Assembly: GCA_037447655.1 (NCBI GenBank)
Contig: JBBHKE010000597.1
Location: forward strand, 86,083-150,082
Source of the DNA: Zygnema cylindricum
Lineage: Eukaryota; Streptophyta; Zygnematophyceae; Zygnematales; Zygnemataceae
DNA: 64,000 nt
Direction of reading: 5' to 3'
Positions 146-40,962 of the stretch are shown here, piece after piece; position 1 is the first letter of the stretch; each line of letters opens with the position of its first letter. A program made the translations under genes and the position numbers. Below the pieces are notes generated by a model that did no database searches, had not been told where the DNA came from, and saw only the letters and a program-made list of their open reading frames with translations.

Positions 146-1515
146 ATGCCAACAGACTGGAACAATTTACCATTTCCAGCTGGTACCACTAGGAGCTCCA
201 GTCTTTACCGTGGACCGGATCAGGATTTGATTCCGGCCCGCTCACCTCCTGTCCAGCTTTAGATCATACTGGTCAGTCTGCTCAGTCTTAGCTTACGGGT
301 TCACCCGACTCTAGATTTGGTATTACCACAACATATAGATCTACATCATCTATCTCCTCATCCTTTTCCCATAGCTGGGGGGAAGATTCGGATATAGACT
401 CCTTTGATATCCGGGATCTAAATCTACCACCTTCGCTTTTGCTTTTGAGCGGAAACATACACACAAACTCCGATTCCTATTTTGGGGATATGGCCTCGCC
501 CATAGACACCGGAGGAGGTAGAAATCAGTTTTGTTTTTCAGGTCTCAAGGACATTATGTCCTTGTCACATTTTCAAATGCTTTTTGATACCGAGATGCGT
601 GATCTCGCATTCCGGTATCAAGACCGTTATGATTTACGGGTTGCTTTTTCGTTACTTGGGCGATACCTTAGGGGATCTGCCCTATCCCTATATACACGGA
701 AATATGCGGCAATTTGTGCTATGACAGAAATGGCACCCGCATATTCTGGATCTTTAGCCATAACAGGCAGTCCATAAATTCTTTTCCAAGCTGCGGTACC
801 CGCAGTTTATGACTCTGCAAGTAACAAAATTTCACCGGAAATACCTGAGGTCCCTCATCAGTTCGCCGTTGCGGCTCGGGCAGCAATTCCAGCTCGCCCT
901 GCAATGCTGGTTCCACTAAGGGATCCGGTATCGTTTGTCTTCAGTTTATTATAGGAAGAGTACCGAATGCAGAATCCCGATCAGGTTAAAGAACTAATGA
1001 ATTTTGAACGTCGCTCAGGCGAAACCGCTCCGGCATTGCGAGCACGTATGGAAACATTACGTGAAGCACTGCCAGATCTCATGTCAGACGCAGAGGCAGT
1101 TCAAAAATTTGTGGGGCAATTTCCCACCCAATCTCGACGTTTCATTCAAAGCCATTTGACTGAGGCATATGGCCTCAAATTTACCTTCGAGCAGGCTGCA
1201 GAGTATGCCGTACGGTATGAAATGCAGACCAGCTGGTGGGACGCTCATGAGCGACCCAAATCTTCTCCTAATGCAAACCCGAATCCTAATCCTAATCCAC
1301 GCAACCCATGGCCCAATCCGAGACCCCCAAGGACTCCAGCCATGGGAACATTACCAACAAACCCTAATGTTCGTATATGTTTTCGATGTGGTAACACTGG
1401 TCACGACGCACGTAGCTGTCCGGATAAGACCGCCACATGTACTCATTGTAATCAAACGGGTCATTATGTACATCGATGTCACATTAAAAATCTCGATTTC
1501 AGTTATCAAAATTAA
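146..1515 (+). pseudogene. Ty3/gypsy element A gag (capsid plus two CCHC zinc knuckles), broken
   Basis: Gag, the RNA-binding structural protein. A reading frame opens at an ATG at 146 and stops at 260. A second frame is open from 292 through a Ser-rich stretch into a retrotransposon-gag-like region around 540-700. It is broken by stops at 775 and 949. The last part, 967-1515, is Arg/Glu-rich, then Asn/Pro-rich, and ends in two CCHC knuckles: CFRCGNTGHDARSC followed by CTHCNQTGHYVHRC. Spacing C-x2-C-x4-H-x4-C is intact in both. The next block (protease) continues in the same frame, so gag and pro were probably one polyprotein. The gene cannot make full-length Gag as it stands. Confidence 0.8.
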
Positions 1516-2578
1516 ATCAAAAGCGGTGGTATACCCGCTCGCTCGGCAAATTTGATCACTCCACCCAAAGGAGTGGAGAAAGACAACCCTCCAAAAATCA
1601 GCAGAAGGGACCGAGAGAAAGCCGAGATGTAGGCCACCGTAGCGACTATGATGAAGGAGCAGTTTGCCGCGCTTATGTTGCAGGTCAAACCGCAATTAAT
1701 CGGAATGGCTCGAACTGTGGTCCACATGCCCTCTTTTGCTAGGCGATCTCTTCGGAAGTCCACTGTTCAACAGCGGGCGGCTCAGTTTAAAGGGACTCCC
1801 GATCATAATCGTGAGTCAAAATCCATTAACACGCGTATCCCACTATCATTTGCTAAAGAACCCCGCTCCCCTATTCCAAAAACGGCTTCAAGCATCACCG
1901 TTGAAGCATTAACTATATTAGAGAGGAACATACAAGACACATATAAGGTCAAAGAACGGTTGTCCATCTTGTCCACCATGCTTCTGGAGATGGATAACAA
2001 CGAAAAAACTATAGATCTAACTCCTTCAGCAGTTGCGTTACAAGCATTACAAAGCCATCGTAGTGCTCTCTCCCTTCAAGCTATTACTCTTGAAGAGCGA
2101 TCTAGTCTCACTCCTCACATCAGTTTTCTAGATAACAAATTGGGCGTGTTCACAAGTAATGGGTTTGCTCCGGTACTTCCCCTCATGGATACAGGTGCAA
2201 AGCCAATTATCCTTGGTTCTGATTTTGCCATCAAAATAGGTCTTACAGCAGATAAGCTACAACCCACTACCACACGTCTATTGACTTCCGCGGGTACCAC
2301 AGAGCTAGTTCTCGGTATTACGATAGACCCAATTTGTTTTCAGTTTCAGAGTCAGTCAGCGACGGAATTCGCAGAAATTTATGCTCACGCCTTGGTCACG
2401 AAGTGTAGTGACTATGAATGCTTGGTTGGTCAAGACTTTATCTTCCGAGTTGGGGGGGGGGGTTGATATGCATGATCAAACATTTTCGTACAGACCTAAC
2501 AATTTTCCGGAATGCAAAATTTGCTTACCCTTATCTCGGCTCGACAACCCATGCCAACTACGGCACATTCGGCGCTGA
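1516..2578 (+). pseudogene. Element A linker and aspartic protease, broken
   Basis: Retroelement aspartic protease, which would mature the polyprotein. Frame 1 continues from gag with a stop at about 1630, then runs open 1648-2466. The active-site loop is LMDTGAKPIILG near 2187-2220, with the catalytic Asp-Thr-Gly kept. The second conserved block is LVGQDFIFRVG near 2420-2455. An 11-base G run at 2452-2462 then shifts the frame. The flap-end motif VDMHDQTFSYRP resumes in frame 2 and stops at 2576. About 150 residues between the zinc knuckles and the active site match nothing I know. The G run is either a slippage lesion or a site where homopolymer length decides the frame. Confidence 0.8.
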
Positions 2579-3806
2579 TCTTGCCAGCCTATGCCGCAGT
2601 TGGCATAGGTGTAGACATCCTTGAATCTCTAACAACGGATGAAATCTACCCCAGATTCCCCAAGTTTACCATAATTATTTAGTAAACCCGGATTTACCAT
2701 TGACTCTTTAGATTTTGACCGACTATATAAATTTACTATACCAATTCCTTTATTTAGTATGCCAGATCCACCCTCCGGTGCAATAGATCCTTCCGAGTTC
2801 TTGCCCATTAAGTGGACATCGGTCAAATTACAACCTCACCAAAACGGTCTCGTTATCTTAGACCTTTTTTCGAGAATAGGGACTTCACTTCTCTCTTGCC
2901 TTCGGAACGGTCTTCTGATAAAACCTTACTATTCCGTAGATATTGATCCTTTAGCCAGGCGCGTTTAGTTGCACCACTGTCAAGTCTTGCACGAACAACA
3001 TCCTCATCTCTTACCCCAGTCTGTGTTCCACGATATGCATTCGGCGTTGGCACAGGATATTCGGCTAATAGGGAATAATCATTTAATGGAAATTGAACCA
3101 ATTGATCTCCTCTTTGCCGGATGGGAATGTCAGGGTATGTCTAGGGCCGAGAAAGGTTTAGGTCTTGTAGATCCGCGCACTAAGCTGTTCTTCGAGGTGG
3201 TTCGTCTGATCCATTTATTCCAAAAATTGGATCGTCCTTTTGGATACATCTTAGAGAATGTAGCAGCTTACAATGACCCCCGACCTACGGGCCTCGCAGA
3301 TTTTAAACGCATTGAATCGTTAATTGGACCACCACTGATCATTGATGCCGCACGCCACGGTTCACTGGCCCACTGGGTTCGTTCCAAGTGGACTAACCTG
3401 GTGGACATGGGTCGGCTCCGAGAAGCTAACCTTGCTGTCCGTCCACCTAACCTTTCCATTCAGGATGCACTTCTTCCATTTCATAAGGTCCAGACATGTA
3501 TCAGACAGACTATCCTCTTGCATTTGGTCTTAACATCCCGGGCCAACCACTACGTGCACTGCCTACACTAGTTGCATATCCACATTCTCACGCATACTCT
3601 AACAATGGACCGGGCATGCTTCAGAATACTCATAGAAGCAGCTTAGAAGAACCTACTGCCACAGAACGAGAACATCTCTTACATTTCATCTCAGACACTA
3701 CTGCTGCTCCGGACTCACCGAGAGGAAGCGCTGCACCTTACTTGGTCGTGTCATGGATCCCCAATCACTGTCATTTGTCTTAGGCGTGGGGTTCGCCGCT
3801 GGATGA
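2579..3806 (+). pseudogene. DNA cytosine-5 methyltransferase domain (Dnmt3-like) inside gypsy element A, frameshifted
   Basis: C5-cytosine methyltransferase placed between protease and reverse transcriptase. Frame 2 carries the SAM-binding motif I, ILDLFSRIGTSLL (about 2858-2896). An acidic SVDIDPLARR follows, then a TAG at 2966. Next come the catalytic-loop motif AGWECQGMSRAEKG (about 3119-3160), motif VI YILENV (about 3245), and a motif-VIII-like GSLAHWVRSKWTN (about 3360-3397). The frame then moves to frame 1 near 3500 for PTLVAYPHSHAY and EPTATEREHLLHF (motif IX-like). It moves to frame 3 near 3717 for motif X-like RCTLLGRVMD, ending at 3804. Catalytic Cys is present, but the usual Pro-Cys is Glu-Cys here. 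It is inactive as read, with one stop and two frameshifts. The Ala-His-x-x-Arg motif resembles Dnmt3/DRM more than Dnmt1. Confidence 0.88.
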
Positions 3807-3965
3807 TATGCACAGAACCGTCCGTCTCAATCAGCTGGGGGGGGGCATACACCATTTAAACACACAGCTTCCAAGTCCTCACCTTCTCTTCGAGGTACAA
3901 TTTTTCAGCTTGCTCTTTTTCCTTTTCCCGCTAAGTCTGACACAGATCACACTATTTATGATTTT
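3807..3965 (+). other. Spacer with G run between methyltransferase and RT of element A
   Basis: Non-coding as it stands. It contains a 9-base G homopolymer near 3837-3845, a second G run at a domain border of this element. It is probably decayed linker coding sequence. Confidence 0.4.
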
Positions 3966-4905
3966 TTGGAACCTAGTCACATGAGTTGGTCTCTCCCAGC
4001 ATACACGGCCGCTAGATCTCAAGTACCGCTACGGGCATCACCACACTGGACAGCTGCCTTTCTGTCTAGAAGTTGGCATTATGCAGTAAATTGTTTGCAT
4101 CAGCTTCCTGTCGAGTATGAGTTGGGTCACTCCTTGATAGGAGATGAACAGCCAGCATTTGCACAAGCCATGGAAGCCATGACCATTAACACGCCTGAAA
4201 AATCGACATGGAAATTCGGAACTGGACTAACCGAAACTAAACACGAACTGTTAGATGAAGTCATAAACCAAAACGTAGACGCATTTGCTTTCTCCATGAA
4301 AGACTTAGGTCGACACACCTTTTACAAAATATCTATTGACTTGGAAGATGACAGACCTATATTTAAGCCCAAGCATCGTCTATCCGAAACCGAATGGGAG
4401 TCCGTAGACAAACGATGCGCAGAGTTAGAAGAGGCAGGTCTGATTTATAGGTCCGATTCCACTTTTGCGGCACCCACCGTCATGCCTCGTAAGAAAGACG
4501 CGGAGGGGAATTTTACAGAACGTCGCATGTGTGGGGACTATCGAGAACTGAATTCACGTACAATCCAAGACCGACATCCAATGCCGTTGGCCGAGGACAT
4601 TTTTGATCACGTGGGCGGAGCTAAATATTTTAGCAACCTATATCTGCGACGGGGATTTAATCAAATCGAAATAGAAGAAAAAGATCTACACAAAACTGTT
4701 TTTTGGGGTAATGACGGACGTTGGGAATGGGCGGTTATGCCCTTTGGACTGAAGAATGCACTGGCAGTCTTCCAAAAAGTCATGGACTCAGTCTTAAGGG
4801 GGTGGAATTTTGCCCGTTGCTATATCGCCGATCCTATCATCGCTTCAGCCTCTATAGAGGAACATGCATTGCATATAGAGTGGGTGTTGTAGGAATTAAA
4901 AAAAA
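3966..4905 (+). pseudogene. Element A reverse transcriptase, catalytic aspartates lost
   Basis: Ty3/gypsy RT palm and fingers. Recognisable blocks in frame 3 are the DDRPIFKPKHRLSETE entry, RMCGDYRELNSRTIQDRHPMP, YFSNLYLRRGFNQI, MPFGLKNALAVFQ and CYIADPIIAS. In active enzymes the third reads L-D-L and the last Y-x-D-D. Here the first catalytic Asp is Tyr, and the YxDD box is Y-I-A-D-P. This RT would therefore be dead even without the TAG at 4890. Just after that stop, an 8-base A run (about 4897-4904) shifts the frame, and the thumb continues in frame 1 from 4906. The methyltransferase lies directly upstream and RNase H directly downstream. Confidence 0.9.
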
Positions 4906-5706
4906 GTGGGACTTAAATGTCATCCTGCCAAATGTACCTTTGGGGCCGAAGGGGTCCCATACCTTGGGCATTTTATCTCATCTGAGGGAATTACTCCGGT
5001 AGAAGTCAAAGTTGAAGCAATTAGTAAACTACCGGCTCCAACTGATTTGATTAGCCTGCGTGCATTTTTAAGGTTAGCCAATTATTACCGGCGGTTTGTT
5101 CCTAGTTTCAGCACGCTTGCATCTCAATTAAATGAACTCTTGAAGAAATCAGTCCCGTTCACGTGGGGACCCTCTCAGATTGAGGCATTTCAGGGATTAA
5201 AGGACGCACTGTCTACCGCTCCCATCCTCCGTCCCCCAAATCATAAATTCTTGTTTTGTCTAAAAACTAAGTTTGGTAAGCCCGGTATTGCCGCTATCCT
5301 AACTCAACGCGAACTCCCAAGTGAGGAGTACGTGGTTGCTTACGCCAGTAGAAGCAACAATAAAGCGGAATCAAATTACAGTAGTTACGAGGGAGAATGC
5401 CTTGCCGCAGTTTGGGGTATTGTGCATTTCCGACATTATCTGTATGGCAAGCCTTTTACCCTTCTTACTGACCATCAACCATTGCATTGGCTCATGACCA
5501 ATGAAAAGTTATCTGGCAAATTAGCCCGTTGGGCTCTTATTTTACAGAAGTATGACATGGAAATAATCCATCGACCCGGGCTCCTCAGTTTGAATATCGA
5601 CGGCCTCTCAAGGAACCCTTTGCCCCACTCCAATTATAACAGTGTACGACAGGATTTTGATGACGTATCAATTGCCTCCTTATCAGCCAAAGCACATTTG
5701 ATTTAA
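4906..5706 (+). pseudogene. Element A RT thumb and RNase H
   Basis: Continues the pol polyprotein in frame 1. LKCHPAKCTFGAEGVPYLGH is the end of the RT palm and RAFLRLANYYRRFVPSF is the connection. RNase H follows, with YVVAYASRSNNKAESNYSSYEGECLAAV split across adjacent blocks, then LLTDHQPLHWL and NIDGLSR. The usual first catalytic T-D-A-S is replaced by L-K-T-K, so RNase H is also probably inactive. A TAA at 5704 interrupts the frame. The following 100 bases stay open in the same frame into integrase, so this was one ORF. Confidence 0.88.
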
Positions 5707-6813
5707 AGTTTTGCCGCACCGACAAACCACAAAACCGAACACGATCCATGGCGGGACAGTGCTTTAATTTTTTTTCTATCTACTCAGTCTTTTCGGGCGG
5801 GCACCCCACCAATGGAAGAGGAGCGTGTTTGTAAGAGAGCCCAAAGTTATTTATGGATGGGGGGCTCACTTATTCGTCTTCTCTCAGATGGAAGTCACTG
5901 GCATGTCCCACTGCCACCGGAGCGACTATCACTAATCAATCTAATTCATACTGACCTTGGACACTACGACACCAAACGGACTTTGAGTCTGGTACAGGCA
6001 TGGTATTGTTTGTCCGGCATGCAGGCTGATGTGGCGGCTGTGTTGGAGGAATGCAGCACATGTGACCGGCTACGAACTTCATTTTCTAACCGACAGACCT
6101 CCCTTCAGTCCTTGCCTATTCGTGGTCTCTTTTAGAGGTGGTCGTGTGATCTTGCAGGTCCCTTTCCCATTTCCCGGAGGGGCAAACAATACTTCATGGT
6201 AATGATCGAGAATTTCAATAAATGTGTGGAAGTTGTAGCACTCTCGCAGAAAACTGCCAAACTTACCACCGTAGCTTTCAAAGAGCACGTGCTCCTACGT
6301 TATGGAGCCCCTGCAGAAGTACTTACTGACCAAGGAACCGAGTTCCGTGGCGGATTTCAAGAGATGCTGGACGAGGCGTTAATCGATCATCGACGGACGA
6401 GCAGAGATCATCCTCAAGCAGACGGTTTGGCTGAGAGAGCTGTACAAACCTTTAAGCGTGCTTTGCGTAAACATTGCTTAGAAAAACAGATTACGGTGTG
6501 GGATGAATCATTGGGATATATTGTCATGGGTTATCGCATGTCTGTACTGGCCAGCTTGGAAAATTTCAGCCCCTACTATGTGTTGTTTGGTCGAAAACCA
6601 CTACTAGGTAAGAATGTACAGAAAGTCGCGAGCTTACCTCTACCTTTTATATATGATTCTTTGTTTTTGGAAGAACTAACTAACCGAGCATTCCTTTTTG
6701 ATAGAGAAATGCCCATGGCTTTTGAAAACTTTTAGATTGCCCAACATCGCGACCTCTTATGGTTTGCAACAACTCGCTGTGGCAGTTACCGGCCACTACA
6801 AAAACCCTTTCGG
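5707..6813 (+). pseudogene. Element A integrase (HHCC, DDE core), two in-frame stops
   Basis: Retroviral-type integrase in frame 1. The zinc-binding HHCC region is in 5940-6070 (H-x4-H in HTDLGH, later CSTC). The catalytic core includes DLAGPFP (about 6145), VLTDQGTEF (about 6320) and the Glu in HPQADGLAERAVQTFKRAL (about 6410-6460), so the D,D,E residues are all present. TAG at 6133 falls between the zinc finger and the core. Another TAG at 6733 falls before the C-terminal domain. A related integrase on the minus strand (20341-21339) has Tyr where 6133 is a stop. The frame continues into the PHD-bearing C-terminus. Confidence 0.9.
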
Positions 6814-7218
6814 GTGGGGGATTACGTTTATTTGCGACGACAAACTTTTGATACACTCGACACGGATGTTTCAGCTCACATCTTGAGGATAACAAAAATT
6901 GACCCGAATGGATTATTAAGCTCACAAGAGGCCGACACGCAAACTTTGTGGGAGCATTCAAAGAATTGTGCCCCCTGCTATCTACCCGATCTTTCCCACA
7001 CCATTGACCCATGGCGGATGGCGATTACCGAGGCCACTGAGTGCCACTTATGCCTGCGATCTGATGGAGAAACAACAATGCTCCTTTGTGACTATTGCAA
7101 TCTGGGATTCCATGTGGAGTGTTTGGTTCCACCTCTGCACACTATCCCGGCTAGACAGTGGTTTTGCCACGAGTGTCACGACCTACCGGCTGTCCTTACC
7201 AGCGTCCCTGCAGACTAA
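6814..7218 (+). pseudogene. Element A integrase C-terminal domain fused to a PHD finger
   Basis: The last 134 codons of pol, open in frame 1. Residues 1-60 are the integrase C-terminal barrel (GDYVYLRRQTFDTLDTD and ILRITKIDPNGLL, then NCAPCYLPD). Residues 78-125 form a C4HC3 PHD zinc finger: CHLC, then LLCDYC, then HVEC, then WFCHEC. All eight ligands are present in the usual spacing. PHD fingers read histone H3 tails, so this module could steer integration to marked chromatin, taking the role a chromodomain plays in chromoviruses. That role is inference. The PHD itself is clear. Confidence 0.85.
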
Positions 7219-7223
7219 GGAGT

Positions 7224-7236
7224 TGGGGGGGGGGGG
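7224..7236 (+). other. Polypurine tract of element A
   Basis: A G homopolymer of about 12 bases lies five bases after the pol stop codon and directly before the LTR-like repeat. This is the expected place for the plus-strand primer. It is unusual in being pure G. Confidence 0.6.
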
Positions 7237-8475
7237 AATTCCATCCTTACTTACTTGATCTTGTTTTTTCTTTTCTTTCCTGGCTAAGTCCATGTGTTAG
7301 GAATAATTTGTTTCTTTTCCGGCAAATTTATTTATTATTTCTTGCAGTATATATGATTTGTTCTCTGATTGTGGTCATAAATACTGTACATATGTAATGG
7401 TCATTCATTTGCTGGTGTTTTTTGGCGACCCACGCGGGATGTGATGCATGCCATTCACGGTTGTACTGTCATGCACGACAGCTGTCATGCCGTAAGATGT
7501 CAGCAGGAATTGTGATTAAATCATGTACTAATTGAAGTTTCGGTGACATGACTAGTACATACCCGAGGGTACAACTAGAGATTCGTACAGGACAAAGGTC
7601 GAAATATACTCTCGTACGGAACTACGGGAACACAATCTGAAATCAGTGTGGAACTGGACCACGGTACGGCATCAGACGTCAGGAATTCAAACGGCCACAA
7701 ACGGAACTGGACCACGGTACGGCATCAGACGTCAGGAATTCAAACGGCCACAAACTTGACAGGTGTCTAAAGTCATGAACCCTTGGAGGTTCATGCATCA
7801 TTTTTGCTTAGTTTAGGGAGGGCTTTTATCCTCGAGGTGTAGATGTAAGGCAGTCGGAGGCGGCCATGCAGCGGTCGTCTCTTGAAACTGGCAGCGTTTT
7901 AACATAGAAGCCTGCCTACTCAGAGACATGTAGGAATTAGTGTAACCGTACAGATTAGTGAAAGCATAGAATAAATGCCATTTGGCAAGATAGAAACGTT
8001 TGCAAATTAAGTACGCGAATCCAACATTGGAAGGTTGTCGTTTTTTGACAAGCATTATTCTCGGGATTTGTCGAACTCTACTGTTAGGGTTTCACCTGAA
8101 TATTTAGTGACAGGCTAGTTTTTGAGTTAGGGTTTTTCCTTTTTCAGACCCATAGTTTCATGCTTGTAATTGTCTCTGAGCTTCTCCTTTATTTGTATTA
8201 AGACCTTACCTAATCTACCGGCGTAAGCCAGCCTGCAAGGTTTCCCTCCAGACTATTTTCTACTTGCTGTGATTTGTGAATTGTGTCTGTGGACTTGGCG
8301 TTTTCTTGCTGTCTAGACGCTGACAGTATGGGCTGGTACTCACCTTGTCTGGCCTTGGAGGAATGCCGGTTATCTCGGCTCTTTCATCCAGCTAAGGAAG
8401 GGTTCTTACCAGCTGATTCAACTCCTATAGGGAATATTGATGACTTCAGGGCCTAGTGGCTACTGTTGCAAATAT
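7235..8475 (+). repeat. 3' LTR region of element A plus short leader-like segment
   Basis: The first 246 bases (7235-7480) recur almost unchanged at 8476-8708. Within this block there is a TATA-like stretch near 7346 and a perfect 53-bp tandem duplication (7651-7703 and 7704-7756). The right boundary of the LTR is not clear. 8330-8455 holds a small open frame starting MGWYSPCLALEE that could be a leader remnant. A possible reading is LTR, short internal remnant, second truncated LTR. No other gene is seen. Confidence 0.5.
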
Positions 8476-8708
8476 GGAATTCCATCCTTACTTACCTGAT
8501 CTTGTTTTGTCTTTTCTTTCCTGGCTAAGTCCATGTGTTCGGAATAATTTGTTTCTTTTCAGGCAGATTTATTTATTATTTCTTGCAGTATATATGCTTT
8601 GGTCACAAATACTGTACATATGTAATGGTCATTTATTTGCTGGTGTTTTTCGGCGACCCACGTGGGATGTGATGCATGCCATTCACGGTTGTACTGTCAT
8701 GCACGACA
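8476..8708 (+). repeat. Second, truncated copy of the element A LTR start
   Basis: Direct repeat of 7235-7480. It ends abruptly at GCACGACA, where the minus-strand gypsy B begins. The junction at 8708/8709 cuts both elements, which suggests a deletion or illegitimate join. Confidence 0.65.
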
Positions 8709-10247
8709 TGGGAGTAAATGAGAAAGGACCTATAGCTTTCCCGTTGTGGTCCCTCTGATTCATTTTATGCTTGTCCTATCTTTGCATCGAGGTGGAATTG
8801 CGGAGTTTGCGACCATTGTCTCCTACCCCAACATCCTAAGCCTCGGAAAGGGAAGTTCGGGTATGGTGGCCATTTGGGGGTTCCAAATCACATGCCAAAA
8901 AATCATCATCATTAGCACTCGCTGTACTTTGAAGCTCAAGCTCCGTAAGTTTTTGGAACAACTCCTATTTCAGTTTTTGGAGTCTTTGTGCTGGCGTGAG
9001 CGGAGCAAGTCGAGAAGAAGATCCCAAGCGGAGGGCAGCCAACTCTGCAGCCATTGCGGTTAGTTGCTGACTCTGCTGCTGGATGATGAATTCCGGTGTA
9101 AGTCTTGTTGTAGCCACCGATGTTTGCTCTGGTTCCTCCTATGTAAGCGGATCTCAGCGTCCCCAAGGATAGAGGAGTTTAAATGGAAGAGGGATAACGT
9201 CAGTTTCTCCTTTTCCAGTGAATAGGGTGAACTGGATCATTTATTTAGGAACTCCATTCTTTCGGAAACATTGCGTTTCTTTATGCTTGAGGAAGCCGCA
9301 AGCCTTGCATTTCGTTCCTTCGAACGTGTATTTACCGTGGACTTCATTTAAGATCTAGTCGTCATCAAACTTTGGAAATTTGATTTGTCGCAGCTAGTAT
9401 TGCGACATTTTGTCGGTTTCTCCTCGAAGAGTCGGACGGTAAGTGTCCTTGGTTACTTGCGTCTTCTCTCTCCCCCCTTCCCTTTTTAGCCTTTCTTGCT
9501 GCTTGCGGGTCCTTTCTGCACGTTCTTTCTCCCATTACTTTAGCTTGAAGGCCTGCTCCGGTTTAAGTTTCCGTGTGCAGTGCTTCCACCCATGGCTTGT
9601 TTGGTGACAATTTAGGCAATTGTAAAGAAAAACTCTTTCGTGTACTCCCATTGCTAGTTCTGACACGCAGTCAGCTACTTGCTTCCCTCTAAGCTTCCTC
9701 AAAGCTTGAAGTTCAGCCTTTTCCTCCTCACTCAAGAAGGTCTCCCCGGCGAATCCTGCAAAATTTGTGCCGGACTTGCCGGTCACGACTTTCTCCCTTG
9801 CTTCACTATGGACGAAATAGTTGTACAACTTTATCGCCACCAACAAAATTTCCTTGGCCGAGGGATTAATGTCCTGAATTAATTGTCTGGCAATCCAATT
9901 ATCCAGAGTAGTGTGCCCGGTGGGCCTGAATGAATTATGGACTGCGATGAAATATTTGGCTGCCATAGCCGGATGATCAATAGTGGATAGCTTTGTCTTC
10001 TGACAAATGTTGGATAGTCGCTTAAAGAGGGTCTGTGGAGTCTTGTTCTTCAAACATCGGAATTCCGTGAATTCCTAGATTGCAAACTCGTTCTTTTTGG
10101 TATAAAGGAGTCTTTAGATGTTAAGCAGAGTGGTACAAGGATGGGGATTATGAACCATGCGAGTTGGTGCTTGGGCTACATGAATGGCTTGTAGCAGGTT
10201 AACATAGGCACCTCATTGTGCTTGTTGTTTCAAGTTTTGGGTGAAGG
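8709..10247 (-). pseudogene. Gypsy B gag C-terminal half with CCHC knuckle, truncated
   Basis: Minus-strand gag of a second gypsy family, collinear with element C at 25238-27560. It has a capsid-like block (TPQTLFKRLSNICQKTKLST, IQDINPSAKE) and a zinc knuckle CLNCHQTSHGWKHC near 9580-9640. Further on are a second Cys-rich stretch and a Gln/Leu-rich segment predicted to be coiled coil. It is interrupted by stops. It is truncated at 8709 before protease, so any methyltransferase that B carried is lost. It is useful as the empty-site reference for the insertion in element C. Confidence 0.75.
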
Positions 10248-10470
10248 TACATCGCGCATCGTTATTAGTGTCAAAGTTTAAATAGCGTAAAAAAAAACAA
10301 TAGTGTTATTGATTCTAATTTAGTGTCAGAAACATGGCAGATTATGGTCCATGTCCTTAAATAGAGTTGCTAATTTAATTTCAAAAATCATGTATACTAA
10401 TTGCGAGAAAAAATCAAGATTTTAAGAACCCAAATTAGAGTTAATAACACTAATAACGATGCACGGTGTA
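10248..10470. mobile_element. TA-flanked MITE (Tc1/mariner-like) inside gypsy B gag
   Basis: A 223-bp AT-rich insertion with terminal inverted repeats: left TACATCGCGCATCGTTATTA, right ending in TAATAACGATGCACGGTGTA. The uninterrupted gag of element C near 25046-25060 reads across the insertion point with a single TA. Here TA is present on both sides, so a TA duplication is directly supported. It has no coding capacity. The ends share CACCG with the array at 16697-17884 but differ internally. Confidence 0.8.
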
Positions 10471-12991
10471 GCACTCACAGGAGTTGCAGCCGCCGCTGCC
10501 AGGTCAGCCTTCGCTTGTAGAACTGCCGCATCAAAGACTGGATCTGAGATCTTGATGCTAGGAGCCATCAAAAGAGGTTGACGCTCCTTGTAATCTGCCT
10601 ATGCCCCTCCAAAAAGTTAGTTGACTATCATGGAGAAGAGGGTTGTCTCGAAGTCATCTGGAATGGCTCCTCCCCTATACTTATTGATTTCCGATTGTGT
10701 GAAAGATTTCCACAACAATTCGAAATCTAAAAATGCGATCCTGGAGCTATCTCGTGTAAAGATCCGGATTTACCCCATTTCTTCTTCTTCCTCTGCAGTA
10801 TTGGTGAAATGGGAAGAGGAAGGCCCGGTGGGACTGACAAACTGAGCAGGCGAGATGACTCCCTTGTCCTCTTCCTCAAGACCAGAACGGTCTCCTCTCC
10901 TAATAAAAGGTGTTACCCTTAGAGGTGTGGATCCCCCTCCCACAAAAGAAGTACCCGGGCCTAAGAATATGGTCAAGGGAAGGATGTTCCACCCTGGTAG
11001 GACCCCTGGTCCTCTTAGTGCGGAGGGACCGCTGGAAGACCTTGCTCTCGAAGAAGATGCTTGATTTCCTACTCCTCTATCTCCAACTACGTATTGTTCT
11101 TCCCTGAGAATTTTCTCCACCGATGGAATGAGGAGATTAGGTCTAGGTCTTTTGGGAAGAGGTGGTGTCGGAAAAGGGGACGATTGGAAGCTTTGAAGAG
11201 AAGGTGTCTGTCTCTTGATAGGTGTTTGTTACCTAAGCCATCTCCGGGAAGTCTCGAGAGGAGGAGTTCCTAAACTGGAAGATGGGGAACGCCGGTGAAG
11301 AGGTGAATAATCATCGTGTCGCTAGGGTAAAAGTGGTGGATTCGGTGACCCACGTAACACTGCAGCAGGAGAAAGTGCTGGCGAAGGCAGGGAGGTGAGA
11401 CAATCTTCGGGCTCTGTAGTAGGTCTCGGGGATGGAGAAGAATGCGGCGGAGGAGGAGAAGGTGAGAGCTCGGGAGATCCTCATGGAGAGGTGGAAAGAG
11501 GTGTGGACGCCCTCAAGGGAATGTGAATCCTCTCGTCCGGTCCTAACTCCACCAAAGCCTCCACGGTAGTAGACACCTCCACCGAGAGAAAGGTAGTCTC
11601 TCCACGAGGAGCCGAAGCGAGTTCATAAGGTAAATTTGCACCCAAACCCTTCACATTAAGTCTTGTGTTTCCCTCCCCTTTCCATTGAAAAGGAGGCTCT
11701 CGGCTTGGCTCCAAGGACAGAGGAGAAGTCCTCGCAGGTGGCGCTTTGGAATGCGACCCTTTCTTTGGTGTAGGAGGAATCTTCTCGCTGAGAATCCTAC
11801 TTGTCCTACGTCGAGCTTCCCTAATAAGCGTCAATTCATGTTCCCAAACCTTTCGCCTTTCTTCCTCTACGGCCTCCTAATCTACAATGGTGGGTTTGGC
11901 CCCCGCTTAGCCTATTCCTGGGATTTTAGAACTTCCACTAGTCATTTGGCTTTTTCAACCACTTTGGTAAGATCCGCTATCTCCATCCCCGAAATTTCGG
12001 GATCATCAGGACTGGTCTGCCACCTTCCCTCAAACAAATCTTTGGGTCCGTACCCAGAATCTCTTGATTTGTCGGTTTGGATCTCCAAACCCATCGGCAT
12101 GGCGAACACGCGTTGCTGTAGGAGCAGGTCTCTCGGTTGAGGTTGACAAAGTAATTGGGGACATCTCCTCCTTGGGAAGGGGTGCGAATCTCCCCTTGCT
12201 GTCTCGGTGGTCAAACCTCTTTCCCCTCAATGGATCTGGTGCTTTTCTCTCGATACCCCCTTCTCCTCTACGAGGCCGCGAAGAGGTGCGTCCTCGAAGG
12301 GTCTCTTGGCTGTGATGTCCTGAGAGGAAGATGGGGGAGGGGGAGAATATAGAGCTCTATGTGTTCAGTCCTCCATTGACTGTTAAGAGCAGCTCTTCGA
12401 TGAAATGCTCAAAATCTCCACCACCCCTCCCACGAGTCTAACCACTTTGACTCGATCTGTCCGAGTCACTCTTTGTACAAACTCTTTAATCACCTTCAGC
12501 TCATGGAGGTAGTGAAGGACAAGGAGTTCTTTACGACTTGGGCGACGTAGATCCGTCAAAATTGCGCGGTCAATCTGAATCTCATCCCCAGGAATCTCAA
12601 ATCTGGTGTGAAGCACGACATGTAGAAGAGGACCCAAATGGGGCTCCCTCCGAGCCTACTGCTTTGGCCAAGCCTTGGGAGACACTCCGTTCCTTTCCTG
12701 GGCCTCATCACGGACTTCCCTCTTTTCCTCAGCATATGCCCTGGCGACCTCCACCAAGGAAGGGTAATGTTCTGGAGTCAGACTTGGAGGAGGTGGAGGG
12801 GAAGAAGCACCAGCCGGTACCTTGGCCGGAGAATGAAAGACAATCTCCATGGGTTCAGACTCCACGGACCTTTGAGAATGTCCCTCCTTTACAAGCCTCT
12901 CATGCCAACCCTGCTCTCCAGATCCGTTATCTAGAGTCACTCCTCCCGACATGATGACATAGGTAACGAGAGAAAGAGTAATGAATGTCAC
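10471..12991 (-). pseudogene. Gypsy B gag N-terminal part, long and low-complexity, broken
   Basis: The minus strand from an ATG near 12991 down to the MITE encodes a Pro/Ser/Glu-rich protein collinear with element C 22630-25060. Shared blocks include PSLTPEHYPSLVEVARAYAE, TLIREARRRTSRIL, DERIHIPLRA, SPAQFVSPTGPSSSHFTN and a LQ-rich capsid part. Several stops and frame changes break it into pieces (12656-12991, 11481-11834, 10770-11120). This N-terminal region of more than 700 residues is unusually long for gag. I recognise no enzyme domain in it. Confidence 0.7.
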
Positions 12992-13139
12992 TAGAGCTCA
13001 CTTCCAAAAAGAGAGCTTCCAAAGTTAAATCACCTATCTCCTCTAATCCGAGCAGACAGGTGGTGCTTTTCACTACTCTGCTTCCCCTACAATAAGTCGA
13101 TCGCACTTGTTCCCTCAAAAACCACTGTCCTGATCTAAG

Positions 13140-14243
13140 GGGTTTCAGTTTACTCCGGGATGGTCACTCCAAAGCAAAAAGAACTCCAGATGAAGACACA
13201 AATGCACTACCACATAGAAATATATAGGTCATTGGTTTGGCTTTCCAGATTTAACAATATCACCTCACCCCAGAAAAGAGAATAAAAGAAAGAGAATGTG
13301 AAATATAGCGAAGCAAGCTTAACATACCCTAGCAATAAAGGATGACAATGAGATAAAGCAGATCCCTCTCCCGATTGTATCGTAAATAGGTATGGTGCTC
13401 CTTCAACCTTCGATGTCCGCAACTTGGAACCGACTAGACTCTTCTCGGTTTGAAACAGCAAAAAGTCCGAAAATCACCCAAAAAGCAGATAGTGCCAACC
13501 ACCCGCCCAGACTGTGATTCCCAGAATAGACAGATAAAAAAAAACAAGATGGTAATAGAGTCGAAAGAGAACAAAGATTTTCCAAAAGAAGGTTTGTTGG
13601 AAATTCTGAGGGTTTTCATAGGAGACAGTACTGATAAGCAACTTGTCTACTTTGACCCCAAGTGGCTTATACATCAAAGTTTGTCAAATTGCAGGTCGAA
13701 AAATCAAAGCTATGCTATTAACCAATGAGCGACAAGCAAGTGAAATTGAATAGACATAAGACAAAAATAATCTGTTTTTTACTTGGGGCAAAAAAATTTG
13801 CTCCGGACTCTAGCTAGATCAGTAGCCGGAAGTTATTATTTGGTCCACTATTAAAAGACAAAGTCGTTAAAAAGACACTAACTTGCCAGACTTTGACCTA
13901 ACGTAATTAATGGACCAAAAGTCAGGCGAGCCTGAGCTAAATTCCTACTGACGGCTAACAGTATAATCTAGATGCATATCCGGAAAGTTACGTGGCAATC
14001 CATAATGTACCCCCCTCGGAGGCTGTCGGAAACTGGTCCCATGTAACTGAATTGCAATCTTTGAAACAGTAGAACTTGGTCATTCGGCCTCCGTTAGACA
14101 CAAAATAAAGTGTGTTCCGCTCAATTTAGGAAAAACAAGGATCACGTCCGGCTTGGTGCACTCACTCCTCCATACTTTGACAAACGTAAATGGTAAAAAG
14201 GGCCCGGAAATCCTTGGTGATATACAGGTGTGCCTGAAAAGCA
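13140..14243 (-). repeat. 5' LTR and leader of gypsy B (inverted copy of 21340-22440)
   Basis: Reverse complement of 21340-22440 over about 1.1 kb with frequent point differences. The outer end reads TGCTTTTCAGG on the minus strand, giving a canonical TG start at 14243. Homology with the other copy stops exactly there. The inner LTR edge and primer-binding site are not certain. Confidence 0.75.
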
Positions 14244-14776
14244 CACGAGCGTGACATCTATAGACGAGCAAGGTGTACATTTGCTAAGTTACTCACACAA
14301 TGGGGAGGGAACAACAGCTCAAAACATGGTAAGGGATGCTATCGATGCCGTGGGTGATGAAGCAGGTTACACAATCAAGCGTAAGGTGTCTCACCTATTA
14401 CCACTACGTTCTCAATCTAGGGGTACACGGGGTCCTCGTGTGGATCTAGTTTTTCAACATGGCGCGGCGAGAACATTAAAGGACATAATCCTCACACACC
14501 CTGCCGGATCCCATGTTTCCTCGCGCGCAACATTACATACTGGTGTTACAGCTCGGGATGCAGCGGCTTCGAAAGAACGTGACTACGCGCACTAAGACCG
14601 AGCTGATACTTTCACACCATTTGCTTTAGAGGTATTGGGGACCTTAGACTCGTCTTTTGACATTTTTTTGCCCGATTGCGCTCAACGATCTTTCAAAGTC
14701 AAAGGGCCGAGAAGCCCTTCTCCAGCTCTCATGTCAACTTTCTATTGCCAACGCATCTTTGTCGCCCTTTAACGTT
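14244..14776 (+). pseudogene. Fragment resembling the C-terminal domain of a non-LTR retroelement protein
   Basis: Open from 14230 to 14595, continuing in frame after one TAA to about 14770. Visible blocks are MVRDAIDAVGDEAGYTIKRK, PRVDLVF, RTLKDIILTHPAG and, after the stop, FTPFALEVLGTL and QRIFVAL. This order (R-x-D-L-V, then a D-hydrophobic strand, then PFALE-x-LG) resembles, from memory, a domain at the C-terminus of some algal and oomycete LINE-like polyproteins. It may be a restriction-enzyme-like fold. I am not sure of the family. The upstream part is cut by the LTR of gypsy B at 14243. Confidence 0.45.
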
Positions 14777-17274: not shown

Positions 17275-17884
17275 TACACCGCCAATCGCTATTAGAGTTT
17301 ATAACGCTAATTCGGTGCCCCTAAATTTTGACCCCAAAACCTGAAATAGAATTAATAACGCTATTAAAGTACGTGGATCATAATCTGCCACGTCTCAGGC
17401 ACTAAATTAGAATCAATAACGCTAATTTTTTTTTGACGCTATTTAATCCTTGACTCTAATAGCGATTGGCGGTGTACTGTACACCGTCAATCGCTATTAG
17501 AGTATATAACGCCAATTCGGTGCCCTTTTTTCAAAAAAAAAAACCTGAAATACAATTAATAACGCTATTTAAGTAGGTGGACCATAATCTACCACGTCTC
17601 ATGTACTAAATTAGAATCAATAACGCTAAATTTTTTTTGACGCTATTTAATCCTTGACTCTAATAGCGATTGGCGGTGTACTGTACACCGCCAATCGCTA
17701 TTAGAGTATATAACGCCAATTCGGTGCCCTTTTTTGAAAAAAAAAAACCTGAAATACAATTAATAACGCTATTTAAGTAGGTGGACCATAATCTACCACG
17801 TCTCATGTACTAAATTAGAATCAATAACGCTAAATTTTTTTTGACGCTATTTAATCCTTGACTCTAATAGCGATTGGCGGTGTA
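17275..17884. repeat. Tandem array of three about 201-bp MITE units with shared inverted ends
   Basis: Units are 17275-17476, 17480-17680 and 17684-17884, separated by CTG, with a period of about 204 bp. Each starts TACACCG(C/T)CAATCGCTAT and ends ATAGCGATTGGCGGTGTA. TA at each outer end fits a Tc1/mariner target site. Units 2 and 3 are almost identical. Unit 1 is more diverged. Adjacent ends form long perfect palindromes at the junctions. Confidence 0.8.
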
Positions 17885-18289
17885 CTAAATTTCTGTACTG
17901 ACGCGCGTTTTTAACTTCTAAAAATAAAAACAGGAAAATAGAGCTGCCCGACATAACTTTAAGGAAATTTCGAATGAAAGAAATTGAATCGCCCAATTTG
18001 AGATTACCCCAAGTAAAAAATGAGACGAGTAAGAAAGCCGGAAAAAAATGTTTTTTCACATACTTTTATTTTTACCATATTTTTTTTTTACTTTTATTTT
18101 TACCATATTTTTTTTTTTCACTTTGTTTTTACTGGTGACCTGGCGCATTCACTGTGGCCAAAACTGTGACAGCTGTCATCGCATCAGCAAAAAATATTGT
18201 CAACGCTAAAATCGACCCCATTTGACTTTACCACTTTTGCCCCTCGACTGGGACAAATATCCAGACGCCGCCGCCTTGAAACCCAGACG
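17885..18289. other. Unassigned AT-rich sequence between MITE array and gypsy G
   Basis: Contains a repeated TTTTTATTTTTACCATA-like stretch at about 18063-18120. No coding sequence is recognised. Confidence 0.3.
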
Positions 18290-27796: not shown

Positions 27797-28633
27797 AGTG
27801 AGAAAGAGGGACCAGATAAGGATCAACAGGAACCGAACTCATCTCCATCTTCACCAAAAGCAACACTTCCCTCCTCCAAGCCGGCGGTCATGCTAGTCCG
27901 GCACCTCATGCCCTATGCTCTCACACACGTGAAGACTCGAGCCTCGTCCCACAACCTGCCCGAAGAAATCCTCATTCAGGCATTGGGAGAGGAGATCCAC
28001 TCTGGAAAGGGGGGGGTAGACAAGACCACTCCGCCAATCACATTATTTTTGTCCACCGATCGTAAAACCCCTATAGTGGATAGGGACTACAATGCCTTAT
28101 CCGTGGCTCTCATAGTGAACAGAACCGGGACCTTCAAGCTCAACGGATACGGGGGATACCTGGACGCTGTGGTCAACACCGGAGCTCTCCCCAACCTCAT
28201 TACCACCTCCGCTTTGCAGAAGATGCCCGAGGAACTCCAGCCCGAAATCTGTAAAAGCAACATCTGCTTAAGCATTGTAAGTAGCGGCAGTCAACCAGTC
28301 CATGGGATAATCAAGGCCATTGATATCGAGTTTTCGGATGACGGAGGCCAACGGTTAAAAATTGAGCTCCCGTTCTTGGTGGTGGAAGGGACTCAATTCG
28401 AAATTCAGTTGGGAATGGCCACCTGGACCCGGCTCAATATGAGTTTGAGCGTGTGGAAAGAACAGTGTACCGTTCGGGACCCCAAAAATCCGGAAGGAAC
28501 CAAAGTGGTTGTTCCTCTGGATTTATGGAACCGGGGAAAGACAAATGTCCCAGTGTCTAGATGCTACCCGGTGTACACAACATCATCTCCGACGGAAGTG
28601 TTTGGCAGTTCCACCGATATCGCCAAGGAAATC
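27797..28633 (+). pseudogene. Gypsy C aspartic protease-like domain, active-site Asp changed to Asn
   Basis: Frame 2, open from 27797 to the TAG at 28634. The active-site region is YLDAVVNTGALPNLI near 28160-28205, where the family has D-T-G. The catalytic Asp is Asn, so this copy is inactive. Downstream strands include SSGSQPVHGIIKAIDIEF, LPFLVVEGTQFEIQLG and MATWTRLNMSL, corresponding to the flap and the second hydrophobic block. It lies immediately upstream of the methyltransferase, the same order as in element A. Confidence 0.7.
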
Positions 28634-29612
28634 TAGCAATTCCCAATTTCCAGGCGATGGGAAGAGGAATATTAGAATAGATTATTACAGGTAGCAAAAC
28701 TCCGGTGGGGAGTGGATCAGGCATTTTCAGCCTTGATGTTGAAGGAATCTACCTCACCGTCTAATGCTTCTAAACGCAAGAGCAGTAACAATAAATTCAA
28801 TCGACAAGTGGTGTCATTCGCAGTTCCCGATTCCGGACTGCGTATTTTATCTCTATTTTCAGGAATTAGTTTTGATTTGGAAGCGGTCTTGAAAACAAGA
28901 TATCAGGTGGAGTCATACACAGCCGTGGAAGTATCTCCCGAGGCTAGGGTGGTTAGCGAACATCGCCTCCACCAACTTCATCATCTATATCCTCAACAGT
29001 TTCCAGTATCAGCCTTCTCCAAAGCTTACCGTAGTCTTCCCCACAATGTAGAAAACATCATCGCGACCCACATGGCCAGTTTGGGAAGAGTAGATTTGGT
29101 TTTGGCAAGCTGGCATTGTCAGGGATACTTCCTAGCAGGACAAGGAAAAGGGCACCAAGACCGCAGAAGTGGAACCTTTTTTCGGTTGATCGCGATAATC
29201 TCGTGGCTTCAACAGCTCCAAGACACGCCGGTGGGGTACGTTCTGGAAAATGTCCACCCGGGAGATGATAAACGAAAACAGGTTGCGGACAGCTGGAATC
29301 ACATAACCCGGATTTTAGGGGCTCCATTAGTTTTTGACGCCGCACAGCTGGGATCCCTGGCACACCGAGTCAGGGCATATTAGACCAACATGATCCCGAT
29401 TCCACTCCTCCGACAACTGTTGGAGAAGGAAATCCCCGACCCGCAAAATTCTGTCCAGCAAATACTTAGGGAAGGTAGAATAGCCACACCAATGACTCGA
29501 CCCGACCGCCCACCTTTCTTTCGGTGCAACAGACTTGGATTCCAAAGGAAAGACCTCCAAACATTGGTCTCTTTCCCTCATAGTCACGCATATCGGTATG
29601 GAGCTGCGGGAA
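28634..29612 (+). pseudogene. DNA cytosine-5 methyltransferase domain (Dnmt3-like) in gypsy C, truncated
   Basis: Second methyltransferase copy, frame 2. Motif I is LRILSLFSGISFDLEAVL (about 28840-28890), followed by YTAVEVSPEARVV. The catalytic loop is LASWHCQGYFLAGQGKGH (about 29103-29155), where Pro of the usual Pro-Cys is His. Motif VI is YVLENVHPGDD (about 29238). A Dnmt3-like GSLAHRVRAY follows, then a TAG at 29381 where Trp is expected. The target-recognition part continues to LQTLVSFPHSHAYRYGAAGM near 29600. Sequence then switches to a copia LTR remnant, so motifs IX-X, RT and integrase are lost. Sequence differs widely from the element A copy, so these are separate lineages sharing the architecture. 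Confidence 0.87.
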
Positions 29613-30046
29613 TGATTTTTTACAGTCTAAAATTGACATGTGTCGACTTATTGGCCATGTCGTACAGTGGTCGTACAAAAAGTACACCGGCACCTGTACC
29701 TTTATATACGATAAATTATTATGATTGGTGTCGTATTTCAGTAGATAGAGTTTTAAAGAGAGATAGGACTTAGAAAAATTTTATAGATTGGACCCTCTTT
29801 CCCAGTGAGCTTCTGTACAAAAGGTCAACTATGACTGTTCATAACTTAATGCTCAAAGGAGCAAATTCAGAGATTCTTTTTGCTATCAACTTAGGGGAGT
29901 CTTGCCTTCACATGGGTGAAGGTAATAAGAGTTTTTCTTTGCCAAGGAGGCACTTATTCTTGCTGAAACACAAAGGGGTCAGGGTTATCCTAGAGGCTTC
30001 GTGTGAGTTGCCTACTCTGAGGTCTTATGGAGGTCTCAAAGTTGCA
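29613..30046 (+). repeat. 3' portion of a J-family copia LTR
   Basis: Matches the distal half of the J LTR and of the solo LTR at 18346-19394, from a GACATGTGTCGAC block to the terminal GGTCTCAAAGTTGCA. The left side is truncated against the methyltransferase of gypsy C. Confidence 0.7.
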
Positions 30047-39720: not shown

Positions 39721-40962
39721 TGTTGATATTTGAGTATTTTATAGGTCTGTATTAGGATAGAAAAAGAGCTGAGGCGGTCTGCCTCTAACTCCCCTTTCCA
39801 AGCCCCCATACTTGTTGTAGTCACTGAAGGCTAGATAGGGAGCTAGAGCCATGGCTGCCTAGGCTCTCTAGAGAAGACAGGGGGTAAATTAGGTAGACTT
39901 ACCAAAAGTTAGTTGACGGACCCAGGAATTGATCCTGGTACCTACCGTCCGTCAGTCCTCAGTAGCCGTTAGCTCTAGCCGTTATGTCTAGAACAGATAT
40001 TACGACATATAGGGTTTGACAGATATATAAATTGTTATATGTAGATTAATCCGTTTAACGGCTAATAGATACTTAGTACATAGATACAGTTTAATTTAGT
40101 ACGAAGTACGGAATGGGGGCAGAACGGATACCGCGCATTTGTTTCGATAGCGAAACAAATACCGCGCATTTGTTTCGACAGCCAAACAAATACCGCGCAT
40201 TTGTTTCGATAACAAAACAAATACCGCGCGTCGAATTTCAGCGGCTAGGATTGTAGCCGGTTTTGATCGGACGGCCACGATAGGTGCCGCGATCACGGAA
40301 CATGTACTTTTGGCGTTTTTCAGCCATCGCCACGTAATGTGACACGTGGCGCGACAATGTTGGATTGCGGCGACTCCGGAGATTGCGGAAACAAATCCAG
40401 CTATGACACGTGTCGACAATGTGGCCATGTTGTACAATGGCCGTACAGAAAGTACACCGGCACCTGTACTTTTATGTACGACACAGTAATTTGATTGGTG
40501 CCGTACTTCAGTAGATAGAGTTTTAGAGGGGGAATAGGACTTAGGAAATTTTGGGTAGATAGCTGTCTCTCCCAGAGAGCACTTTGTATAAATGGCTAAC
40601 TTTGGGCAGCCATAACTATCAATTTACTTGACCATTTTCAGTGATTCTTTTTGCTCCGGACTCAAGGGAGTCTAGGATACACAGGGGTGTAGTCGGTCAG
40701 AGTTTTTGTCTGCCAGGGTGGCTGTATTTCTAAGGGAAAGTCAAAGTGGGTGAATGTGTCCAAATCTCATATTCTAACTTTGCATTCTGTGGTGGAACTA
40801 AGCACACAGAAAGTGTTATTTCACAGGGGTGAATCTATATTGGGGTTCTGACTGTCAAGGGGTCAGTCACTTGGGTTTATATTAACTTGGAGTCGGCACT
40901 ATCTAGATTAGCTTCTTTTGGATCTGCATACTCTGAGGGCCAATGGAGGTCTCAGAGTTTCA
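39721..40962 (+). repeat. 5' LTR of J, with antisense tRNA-like module and 31-bp repeats
   Basis: Minus-strand tRNA-like module at 39912-39994 with T arm CCAGG-ATCAATT-CCTGG. At 40126-40230 three to four units of about 31 bp alternate GAAACAAATACCGCGCATTT with TTTCGATAGC. Because each unit carries GCGCATTTGTTTCG and CGAAACAAAT, it can also fold on itself. Confidence 0.85.

What the first reader, a model, noticed from the sequence alone, without database searches (positions are those of the whole stretch)
2750..3806. Gypsy retrotransposon A carries its own DNA cytosine methyltransferase
Seen: methyltransferase motifs I, IV, VI, VIII, IX and X in order, embedded between protease and RT. Known: I recall C5-methyltransferases in retrotransposons being reported from Klebsormidium and Symbiodinium. 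Inference: the element may have methylated its own copies, either to limit damage or to hide from host silencing.
Basis: partly seen in the sequence, partly recalled or inferred. Interest (0 to 1): 0.9.

Follow-up and report, generated by a model that had tools for sequence, protein, structure and literature searches.

The report
Gypsy retrotransposon with DNMT3-type methyltransferase
A jumping gene that copies itself through RNA carries a gene for a DNA-methylating enzyme related to animal DNMT3; this kind of element was reported in 2018 from an alga, and here it is a large family with unbroken copies, an added chromatin-reading finger and an unusual way of sitting in the DNA.

Summary

The kind is known: KnitGypsy-Dnmt3 of Klebsormidium (PMC5890265) shares Gypsy domains, unrearranged Dnmt3-type enzyme and A-coding-B-A-B repeats. 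Beyond the text I read there: exact 4-bp target duplications at TG...CA ends in 5 of 8 readable copies, so the DDE integrase inserts this permuted form; a PHD finger; Glu for Pro before the catalytic Cys in one subfamily; and public relatives with the enzyme before the integrase. Self-methylation is plausible but unshown; KnitGypsy's domain gave no methylation in yeast, which its authors call inconclusive.

The parts
292..1512 (+). Element A gag region (broken), two CCHC zinc knuckles near 1375-1510
   Evidence: PF00098 4e-5; matches gag of open copy L009 (97% identity over 955-1512)
1633..2463 (+). Element A aspartic protease region
   Evidence: PF13650 E=1e-3, below its cut-off; 92% identical to L009 protease region; aligns to protease of P0002 at 3e-27, which passes PF13975's cut-off
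2786..3821 (+). Element A DNMT3-type C5 cytosine methyltransferase domain, broken here by one in-frame stop (2966-2968) and two frame changes
   Evidence: PF00145 1.2e-9; DNMT3A 1e-10; limits from alignment to L009 3932-4969
3807..4889 (+). Element A reverse transcriptase
   Evidence: PF00078 4.6e-13
4900..5703 (+). Element A RNase H
   Evidence: PF17917 5.1e-32
5707..6732 (+). Element A DDE integrase (H2C2 and rve)
   Evidence: PF17921 4.4e-10, PF00665 1.3e-10
7042..7176 (+). PHD finger at the C-terminus of the polyprotein
   Evidence: PF00628 2.4e-10; C4HC3 pattern found in 10 of 20 fetched loci, all A-type
7225..7236 (+). G run directly before repeat B1, polypurine-tract-like
   Evidence: read from sequence; a G run precedes B1 in all ten copies printed
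7235..7480 (+). Repeat B1
   Evidence: 90.7% identical to 8476-8708
7482..8475 (+). Repeat A2; its partner A1 lies outside the window at G000:C451:84132-85074 (L029:1050-1992)
   Evidence: 86.6% identity by BLAST, 90.8% over ungapped columns
8476..8708 (+). Repeat B2, right end of element A (ends ...CACGACA)
27797..28633 (+). Element B protease region (second methyltransferase element)
   Evidence: 72% identical to the equivalent region of L012 and L013; no Pfam hit by itself
28676..29620 (+). Element B DNMT3-type methyltransferase, decayed (catalytic motif reads SWHCQG) and cut off near 29620 by another repeat
   Evidence: PF00145 2.9e-4, just under cut-off; 37% identical to element A's; 60-64% to L012/L013/L022/L023

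Best explanation
Element A is a dead copy of a large Ty3/Gypsy family in which a DNMT3-type DNA cytosine methyltransferase is a regular domain of the polyprotein, between protease and RT, followed by RNase H, a DDE integrase and a C-terminal PHD finger. Shown here: identity of the domains, the place of the enzyme in 20 of 20 fetched loci (chosen by the enzyme), open copies, purifying selection, DNMT3-like predicted fold, A1-ORF-B1-A2-B2 repeats, TG...CA ends and 4-bp target duplications. Inferred: the enzyme, made in the same polyprotein as RT and so present in the same particle, methylates the element's new cDNA or its integration site during or just after reverse transcription, so that the copy looks like host DNA or goes quiet early. 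Reverse transcription yields repeats of order B-A, and the integrase acts on the B|A junction (CA-GC-TG) of a circular form, which leaves the permuted A-ORF-B-A-B insertion. The PHD finger probably steers the integrase to chromatin. Likelihoods: identity and place of the enzyme about 0.97; DDE insertion of the permuted form about 0.9; DNA methylation of its own cDNA or insertion site as the selected role about 0.5; circular intermediate about 0.5.
Against: No activity or methylome data. In the A subfamily and in 17 of 20 public relatives that show the motif, the Pro of the catalytic Pro-Cys is Glu, which could impair or change catalysis. The KnitGypsy domain gave no methylation in yeast, called inconclusive by its authors because human DNMT3B also failed. 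C/T differences between A1 and A2 are only mildly raised at CG (90/911) and CHG (50/426) over CHH (113/1742), and A-type copies keep CpG near expectation, 0.80-0.96. Window element A itself shows no target duplication. How many copies of this RT clade lack the enzyme is unknown, since that search did not complete.
Confidence: 0.6

Rival explanations
1. The enzyme acts on RNA (the genomic RNA or a tRNA primer), not on DNA, as DNMT2 does on tRNA; methylation would stabilise the packaged RNA or aid priming.
For: C5 methyltransferase folds can switch substrate (recalled); tRNA methyltransferases of the DNMT2 type are among the profile's PDB matches (9hgm 9.8e-8, 4h0n 1.3e-7); the altered catalytic motif of the A subfamily; no DNA methylation by KnitGypsy's domain in yeast.
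Against: The closest family is DNMT3 by a wide margin (4.5e-23 against 9.8e-8), a DNA enzyme; the B subfamily keeps the canonical Pro-Cys.
Confidence: 0.15
2. The domain no longer catalyses methylation; it is kept as a DNA- or RNA-binding or assembly part of the polyprotein.
For: Glu for Pro before the catalytic Cys in all 14 A-type loci in which the motif pattern was found, and in 17 of 20 public relatives.
Against: Catalytic Cys, motif VI Glu-Asn and motif VIII Arg-x-Arg are invariant in 11 of 11 aligned enzymes, which a binding-only role would not need.
Confidence: 0.15
3. The enzyme serves to limit the element: it methylates and silences its own new copies so that the host is spared, a self-restraint that spreads with the host.
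For: Proposed in PMC5890265 (section 11); in that paper CHG and CHH methylation is found on KnitGypsy-Dnmt3 copies (section 9).
Against: The family has at least 150 close copies with very young ones (L009 A1/A2 100% identical over 931 bp), so restraint is incomplete; self-silencing needs selection at host level.
Confidence: 0.15
4. A host methyltransferase gene or pseudogene happened to be inserted into one Gypsy copy; not a property of the family.
For: The copy in the window is broken.
Against: Same place in 20 of 20 fetched loci of two subfamilies and in public relatives P0002 and P0003; purifying selection.
Confidence: 0.01

Closest known systems
KnitGypsy-Dnmt3 (Klebsormidium nitens; de Mendoza et al. 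2018, PMC5890265)
   Same: Gypsy domain composition, Dnmt3-class enzyme without rearrangement in the pol frame, intronless copies under purifying selection (Ka/Ks<0.2 there), A-coding-B-A-B repeats (sections 9-11 and legend passages read).
   Different: Other host. Copy count (at least 150 here), 4-bp target duplications with TG...CA ends, PHD finger and Pro-to-Glu change are not in the text I read ('PHD', 'proline' and 'split' give 0 hits); its sequence, figures and supplements were not at hand, so it may share some of them.
SymbioDIRS-Dnmt3 and SymbioLINE-Dnmt (Symbiodinium; same paper)
   Same: Retrotransposons with a DNMT; two SymbioDIRS domain orders reported, as I find two orders among Gypsy relatives; A-B-A-B repeats in SymbioDIRS.
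   Different: Tyrosine-recombinase or LINE elements, not DDE-integrase Gypsy.
DNMT3A/DNMT3B
   Same: Best match by sequence profile and fold; co-linear motif order.
   Different: About 20-25% identity; no PWWP or ADD domain found in the element; Glu-Cys instead of Pro-Cys in the A subfamily.
Orchid Gypsy elements with an AlkB-type m6A demethylase (PMC9289625, abstract and passages read)
   Same: A Gypsy element with a captured nucleic-acid-modifying enzyme.
   Different: RNA demethylase in an additional open reading frame; not a methyltransferase.
VIPER/Ngaro/PAT-like tyrosine-recombinase elements (PMC6681497, passages read)
   Same: Repeat order A1 at the 5' end, B1-A2-B2 at the 3' end.
   Different: Use a tyrosine recombinase; here a DDE integrase with target duplications, and no tyrosine recombinase found in L009.

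Membership tests
KnitGypsy-Dnmt3 kind | Gypsy domain composition with a Dnmt3-class enzyme in the pol frame | tested here: met
KnitGypsy-Dnmt3 kind | A-coding-B-A-B repeats | tested here: met
   A1-ORF-B1-A2-B2 read in 7 of 20 fetched loci (L009, L011, L015, L016, L017, L024, L025) and the window element; 13 loci not resolved or not fetched at both ends, L019 among them with A1 and one B only
[quoted passage not shown]
   median dN/dS 0.18 in 23 A-type pairs, range 0.07-0.57, and 0.26 in 6 B-type pairs; pairs with dS <=0.05, >=1.2 or undefined were dropped. Four-fold sites 0.61-0.70 different against residues 0.17-0.24 in the nine between-subfamily pairs of five copies
KnitGypsy-Dnmt3 kind | Same sequence clade as the Klebsormidium elements | not tested
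   the Klebsormidium sequences were not at hand
DNMT3 methyltransferases | Closer to DNMT3 than to DRM or bacterial enzymes | tested here: met
   profile against PDB: DNMT3A 4.5e-23, DRM 1.1e-10 (partial match), HaeIII 4.3e-10
DNMT3 methyltransferases | Catalytic Pro-Cys of motif IV | tested here: inconclusive
   Cys kept; Pro kept in 5 of 5 B-type loci, Glu in 14 of 14 A-type loci in which the pattern was found (1 A-type locus, L028, not found)
DNMT3 methyltransferases | De novo DNA methylation activity | not testable with these tools
   needs an assay
DRM methyltransferases | Rearranged motif order | tested here: not met
   motifs I-IV-VI-VIII-IX-X in order
Ty3/Gypsy LTR retrotransposons | RT-RNase H-DDE integrase order | tested here: met
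Ty3/Gypsy LTR retrotransposons | Conventional LTRs at both ends | tested here: not met
   no B repeat upstream of A1 in 4 of 4 copies compared (L009, L024, L025 and the window element); ends are A1 and B2
Ty3/Gypsy LTR retrotransposons | Short target duplication at TG...CA ends | tested here: met
   5 of 8 copies with both ends read are exact (L009 TTGG, L015 AAGG, L016 CCCT, L017 CCCC, L024 GTGG), 2 match at 3 of 4 bases (L011, L025), the window element does not
DIRS/PAT/Ngaro/VIPER tyrosine-recombinase elements | Tyrosine recombinase | tested here: not met
   no PF00589 at E<=0.001 in the 2395-codon frame of L009, which fills most of the space between A1 and B1

The most novel reading that the evidence does not exclude
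An ancient green-lineage Gypsy clade took in a DNMT3-type enzyme once, kept it while it moved between two places in pol (protease-MTase-RT and RNase H-MTase-integrase), and pairs it with a PHD finger on the integrase: one polyprotein with both a DNA-methyl writer and a chromatin reader. Its DDE integrase inserts a circular form by cutting an internal CA-GC-TG junction, giving A-ORF-B-A-B insertions with 4-bp target duplications, and much of the clade uses a Glu-Cys instead of Pro-Cys catalytic motif that would be a new C5-methyltransferase variant.
Probability: 0.35. Interest if true: 0.75.

Novelty: new member of a known kind. Interest (0 to 1): 0.52.

Why it matters
DNA methylation is how many hosts silence such elements; an element that carries the silencing enzyme itself, keeps it under selection and has very young copies turns that around. 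The genome here has subfamilies with canonical and with altered catalytic motifs, and open copies, so the 2018 question of what the enzyme does for the element can be put to a test. The target duplications also indicate that A-ORF-B-A-B repeats, usually taken as a sign of tyrosine recombinases, can be inserted by a DDE integrase.

Tried and rejected
A chance or host-pseudogene origin was rejected. Membership in DRM was rejected by motif order. Phage and plasmid enzymes: the listed hits are about 30-50% identical over part of the domain (4 plasmid records; 20 of 65 phage records shown), ordinary distant C5 enzymes and no close source. Viral contigs: 9 pattern matches, none confirmed as relatives. 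I tried nesting of element A inside a B-type element: B-type gag (minus strand) abuts the right end at 8709, but the 1049 bases left of A1 showed no B-type sequence except 81 bases at their far end, so I make no claim. By eye no tRNA primer site is evident directly after A1. DNMT1 and CMT do not appear in the profile's PDB list, nor DRM in the rows; these absences are no proof. In one search the row L011 of the integrase tree was read in a wrong frame (18 stops); I dropped it and built the tree again without it, adding L018. Papers that report a PHD finger in a Gypsy polyprotein: searches; I recognised none in the listings; PMC3286476 and PMC5408684 (passages) mention PHD only for a host gene and in a reference on CR1-like non-LTR elements; a PHD after a Gypsy-like integrase is known in one Ginger1 DNA transposon (PMC2836005, passages).

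Not answered: the genome search failed as busy; it answered twice. So the survey of RT copies without the enzyme, the count of B-type copies (not repeated), the host's own DNMT3 and the RuBisCO search to place the host were not done.

Full report
What was claimed.

The observation. The three frame segments are real. Window 2969-3568 matches PF00145 with E=1.2e-9, 38.5 bits against a cut-off of 22, and NCBIfam's dcm superfamily at 7.6e-10, under that model's cut-off. Among solved structures the best are DNMT3A (1e-10) and DNMT3C/B, far ahead of HaeIII and HhaI (0.01 or worse). The copy is broken: one in-frame stop and two frame changes inside the enzyme, more elsewhere.

A second element in the window. 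Window 28676-29380 also hits PF00145 (2.9e-4, just under cut-off) and is 37% identical to the first enzyme (9e-29). It follows a protease region (27797-28633) and is cut off near 29620. It belongs to a second subfamily, B.

The host genome. The window is G000:C451:86083-150082 of an assembly of 352,776,454 bases in 2,689 contigs. PF00145 gave 123 scored matches of 782 candidates. The piece 2969-3568 gave 1364 candidates, of which the best 150 were scored, all at E<=3.2e-78 and, apart from the window's own copy, 63 to 93% identical; by my count of the rows 56 of 150 have no stop inside the match. These are lower bounds for the family. I fetched 20 of the PF00145 places, picked mostly for long open frames, as 10-kb loci. 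All 20 have the enzyme between protease and RT; 15 are A-type, 5 (L012, L013, L020, L022, L023) B-type. Since they were chosen by the enzyme, this shows where it sits, not how many copies lack it. L009 is open for 2395 codons with RT, RNase H, H2C2, rve, PF00145 (2e-11) and PHD (1.5e-9) in one frame; of two B-type frames scanned, L012 shows a weak PHD (2.4e-4, under cut-off) and L013 none.

Selection. Median dN/dS for the enzyme is 0.18 in 23 A-type pairs (range 0.07-0.57) and 0.26 in 6 B-type pairs; for RT 0.25 in 20 A-type pairs and 0.14 in 6 B-type pairs; RNase H (0.09) and integrase (0.12) are lower in the A-type, and RNase H (0.43) and integrase (0.42, 3 pairs) higher in the B-type. Pairs with dS at or under 0.05, at or over 1.2, or undefined were left out. 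Between A subfamilies dS is saturated, so I counted four-fold sites: in the nine between-subfamily pairs of five copies, 61-70% differ in the enzyme and 61-73% in RT, while only 17-24% and 18-25% of residues differ. The enzyme is held about as tightly as the polymerase.

Ends and insertion. The repeats are A1-ORF-B1-A2-B2. In L009 A1 and A2 are identical over 931 bp and B1/B2 99.6% identical. No B lies upstream of A1 in 4 of 4 copies compared. For the window element A1 lies outside the window at C451:84132-85074. The ends read TGTCATGC... and ...GCACGACA in most A-type copies, and the inner B1|A2 junction reads CA-GC-TG in 8 of the 10 copies printed (L023 has CA-AC-TG, L026 differs). With the ends set by eye at TG and CA, 8 copies have both ends in hand (7 of the 20 loci and the window element): exact 4-bp duplications in L009, L015, L016, L017, L024; 3 of 4 bases in L011 and L025; 1 of 4 in the window element. 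The five exact ones are the five with the most similar A1 and A2 (100, 99.6, 99.6, 96.9 and 95.4%; L024 is 94.6% by BLAST with gaps), against 93.8, 90.8 and 87.3% in L025, the window element and L011. Not readable: in L010, L023 and L026 no A1 was found in 1.9 kb upstream, in L020 it runs off, L013 shows no repeats within 2 kb, L019 has A1 and one B without A2 and no duplication; for L012, L014, L018, L021, L022, L027 and L028 no flanks were fetched. No tyrosine recombinase was found in L009. So a DDE integrase inserts a form that looks like a circle of a B-A repeat element opened at B|A; the circle is inference.

Relatives elsewhere. The polyprotein-length searches found P0002 (gag-protease-enzyme in one frame, 45% identical to element A's enzyme) and P0003-P0010. 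First order: P0002 and P0003 have a protease match before the enzyme (P0003's under the cut-off), the fragments P0011 and P0024 look the same by eye, and P0004 has the end of the enzyme before RT. Second order: P0005, P0006, P0007, P0009 and P0010 have the enzyme, or part of it, before the integrase and PHD; P0008 has RT and RNase H before it; P0007 and P0008 also have a G-patch after it; the fragments P0020 and P0025 end in an integrase part. PF00145 itself passes its cut-off only in P0007 of this group, so for the rest the enzyme rests on the matches and the alignments. No single protein shows RT, enzyme and integrase of the second order together. The trees of the enzyme and of integrase plus PHD both split the two orders (98/94 and 100/99 support), which fits one old clade; there is no outgroup, so one or two captures cannot be told. 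The only named relative is P0019 from Closterium sp. NIES-54, a zygnematophyte alga. The host of the window is therefore probably a streptophyte alga, but this was not tested.

Does it methylate itself? C/T differences between A1 and A2 of six copies (one of them, L009, without any difference): CG 90/911, CHG 50/426, CHH 113/1742. This mild excess fits plant-like methylation of the copies but cannot tell who made it. A-type copies have CpG observed/expected 0.80-0.96, B-type 0.55-0.67.

What is known. PMC5890265 (abstract, sections 9-11 and passages read) reports KnitGypsy-Dnmt3: Gypsy domains, Dnmt3-type enzyme in pol, DIRS-like repeats (A-coding-B-A-B), purifying selection, CHG and CHH methylation on copies, and no activity in yeast, which the authors call inconclusive. 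PMC12344493 (passages) repeats that DNMT3 members sit in retrotransposons of streptophytes and dinoflagellates, naming LTR Copia and DIRS families. [quoted passage not shown] My searches for follow-up listed no paper whose title or shown abstract reports more of the Gypsy kind; I did not read all of the papers listed. So the finding is a new member of a known kind, with details that I did not see in the text of the 2018 paper.

Verdict. Real, well preserved as a family, and mostly anticipated in 2018. The target duplications, the PHD finger, the Glu-Cys motif and the two domain orders add to it.

Noticed in passing
window 27797-29620 (+): Second Gypsy element with a DNMT3-type methyltransferase (subfamily B), decayed and truncated by another repeat.
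   Followed up: yes
window 7042-7176 (+): PHD finger at the C-terminus of the Gypsy polyprotein; its pattern is found in 10 of 20 fetched loci and in P0004-P0007, P0009 and P0010.
   Followed up: partly
window 8710-14256 (-): B-type gag relative on the minus strand that abuts the right end of element A; the 1049 bases left of A1 do not continue it.
   Followed up: partly
G000:C783:159200-171700 (L044, L019, L045): A copy with A1-ORF-B only, no A2-B2 and no target duplication; a deletion or a one-repeat form.
   Followed up: no
P0007 404-438, P0008 903-943: G-patch next to the methyltransferase in the second domain order.
   Followed up: no
window 40937-42829 (+), 48775-49362 (-), 62885-63493 (+): Copia-type gag frame of 631 codons (PF14223 6.7e-16) and two retroviral SH3-like domain matches.
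   Followed up: no
window 17336-17947, 40092-40260, 43222-43390, 58880-59105: Tandem repeats of about 204, 31, 31 and 50 bp.
   Followed up: no
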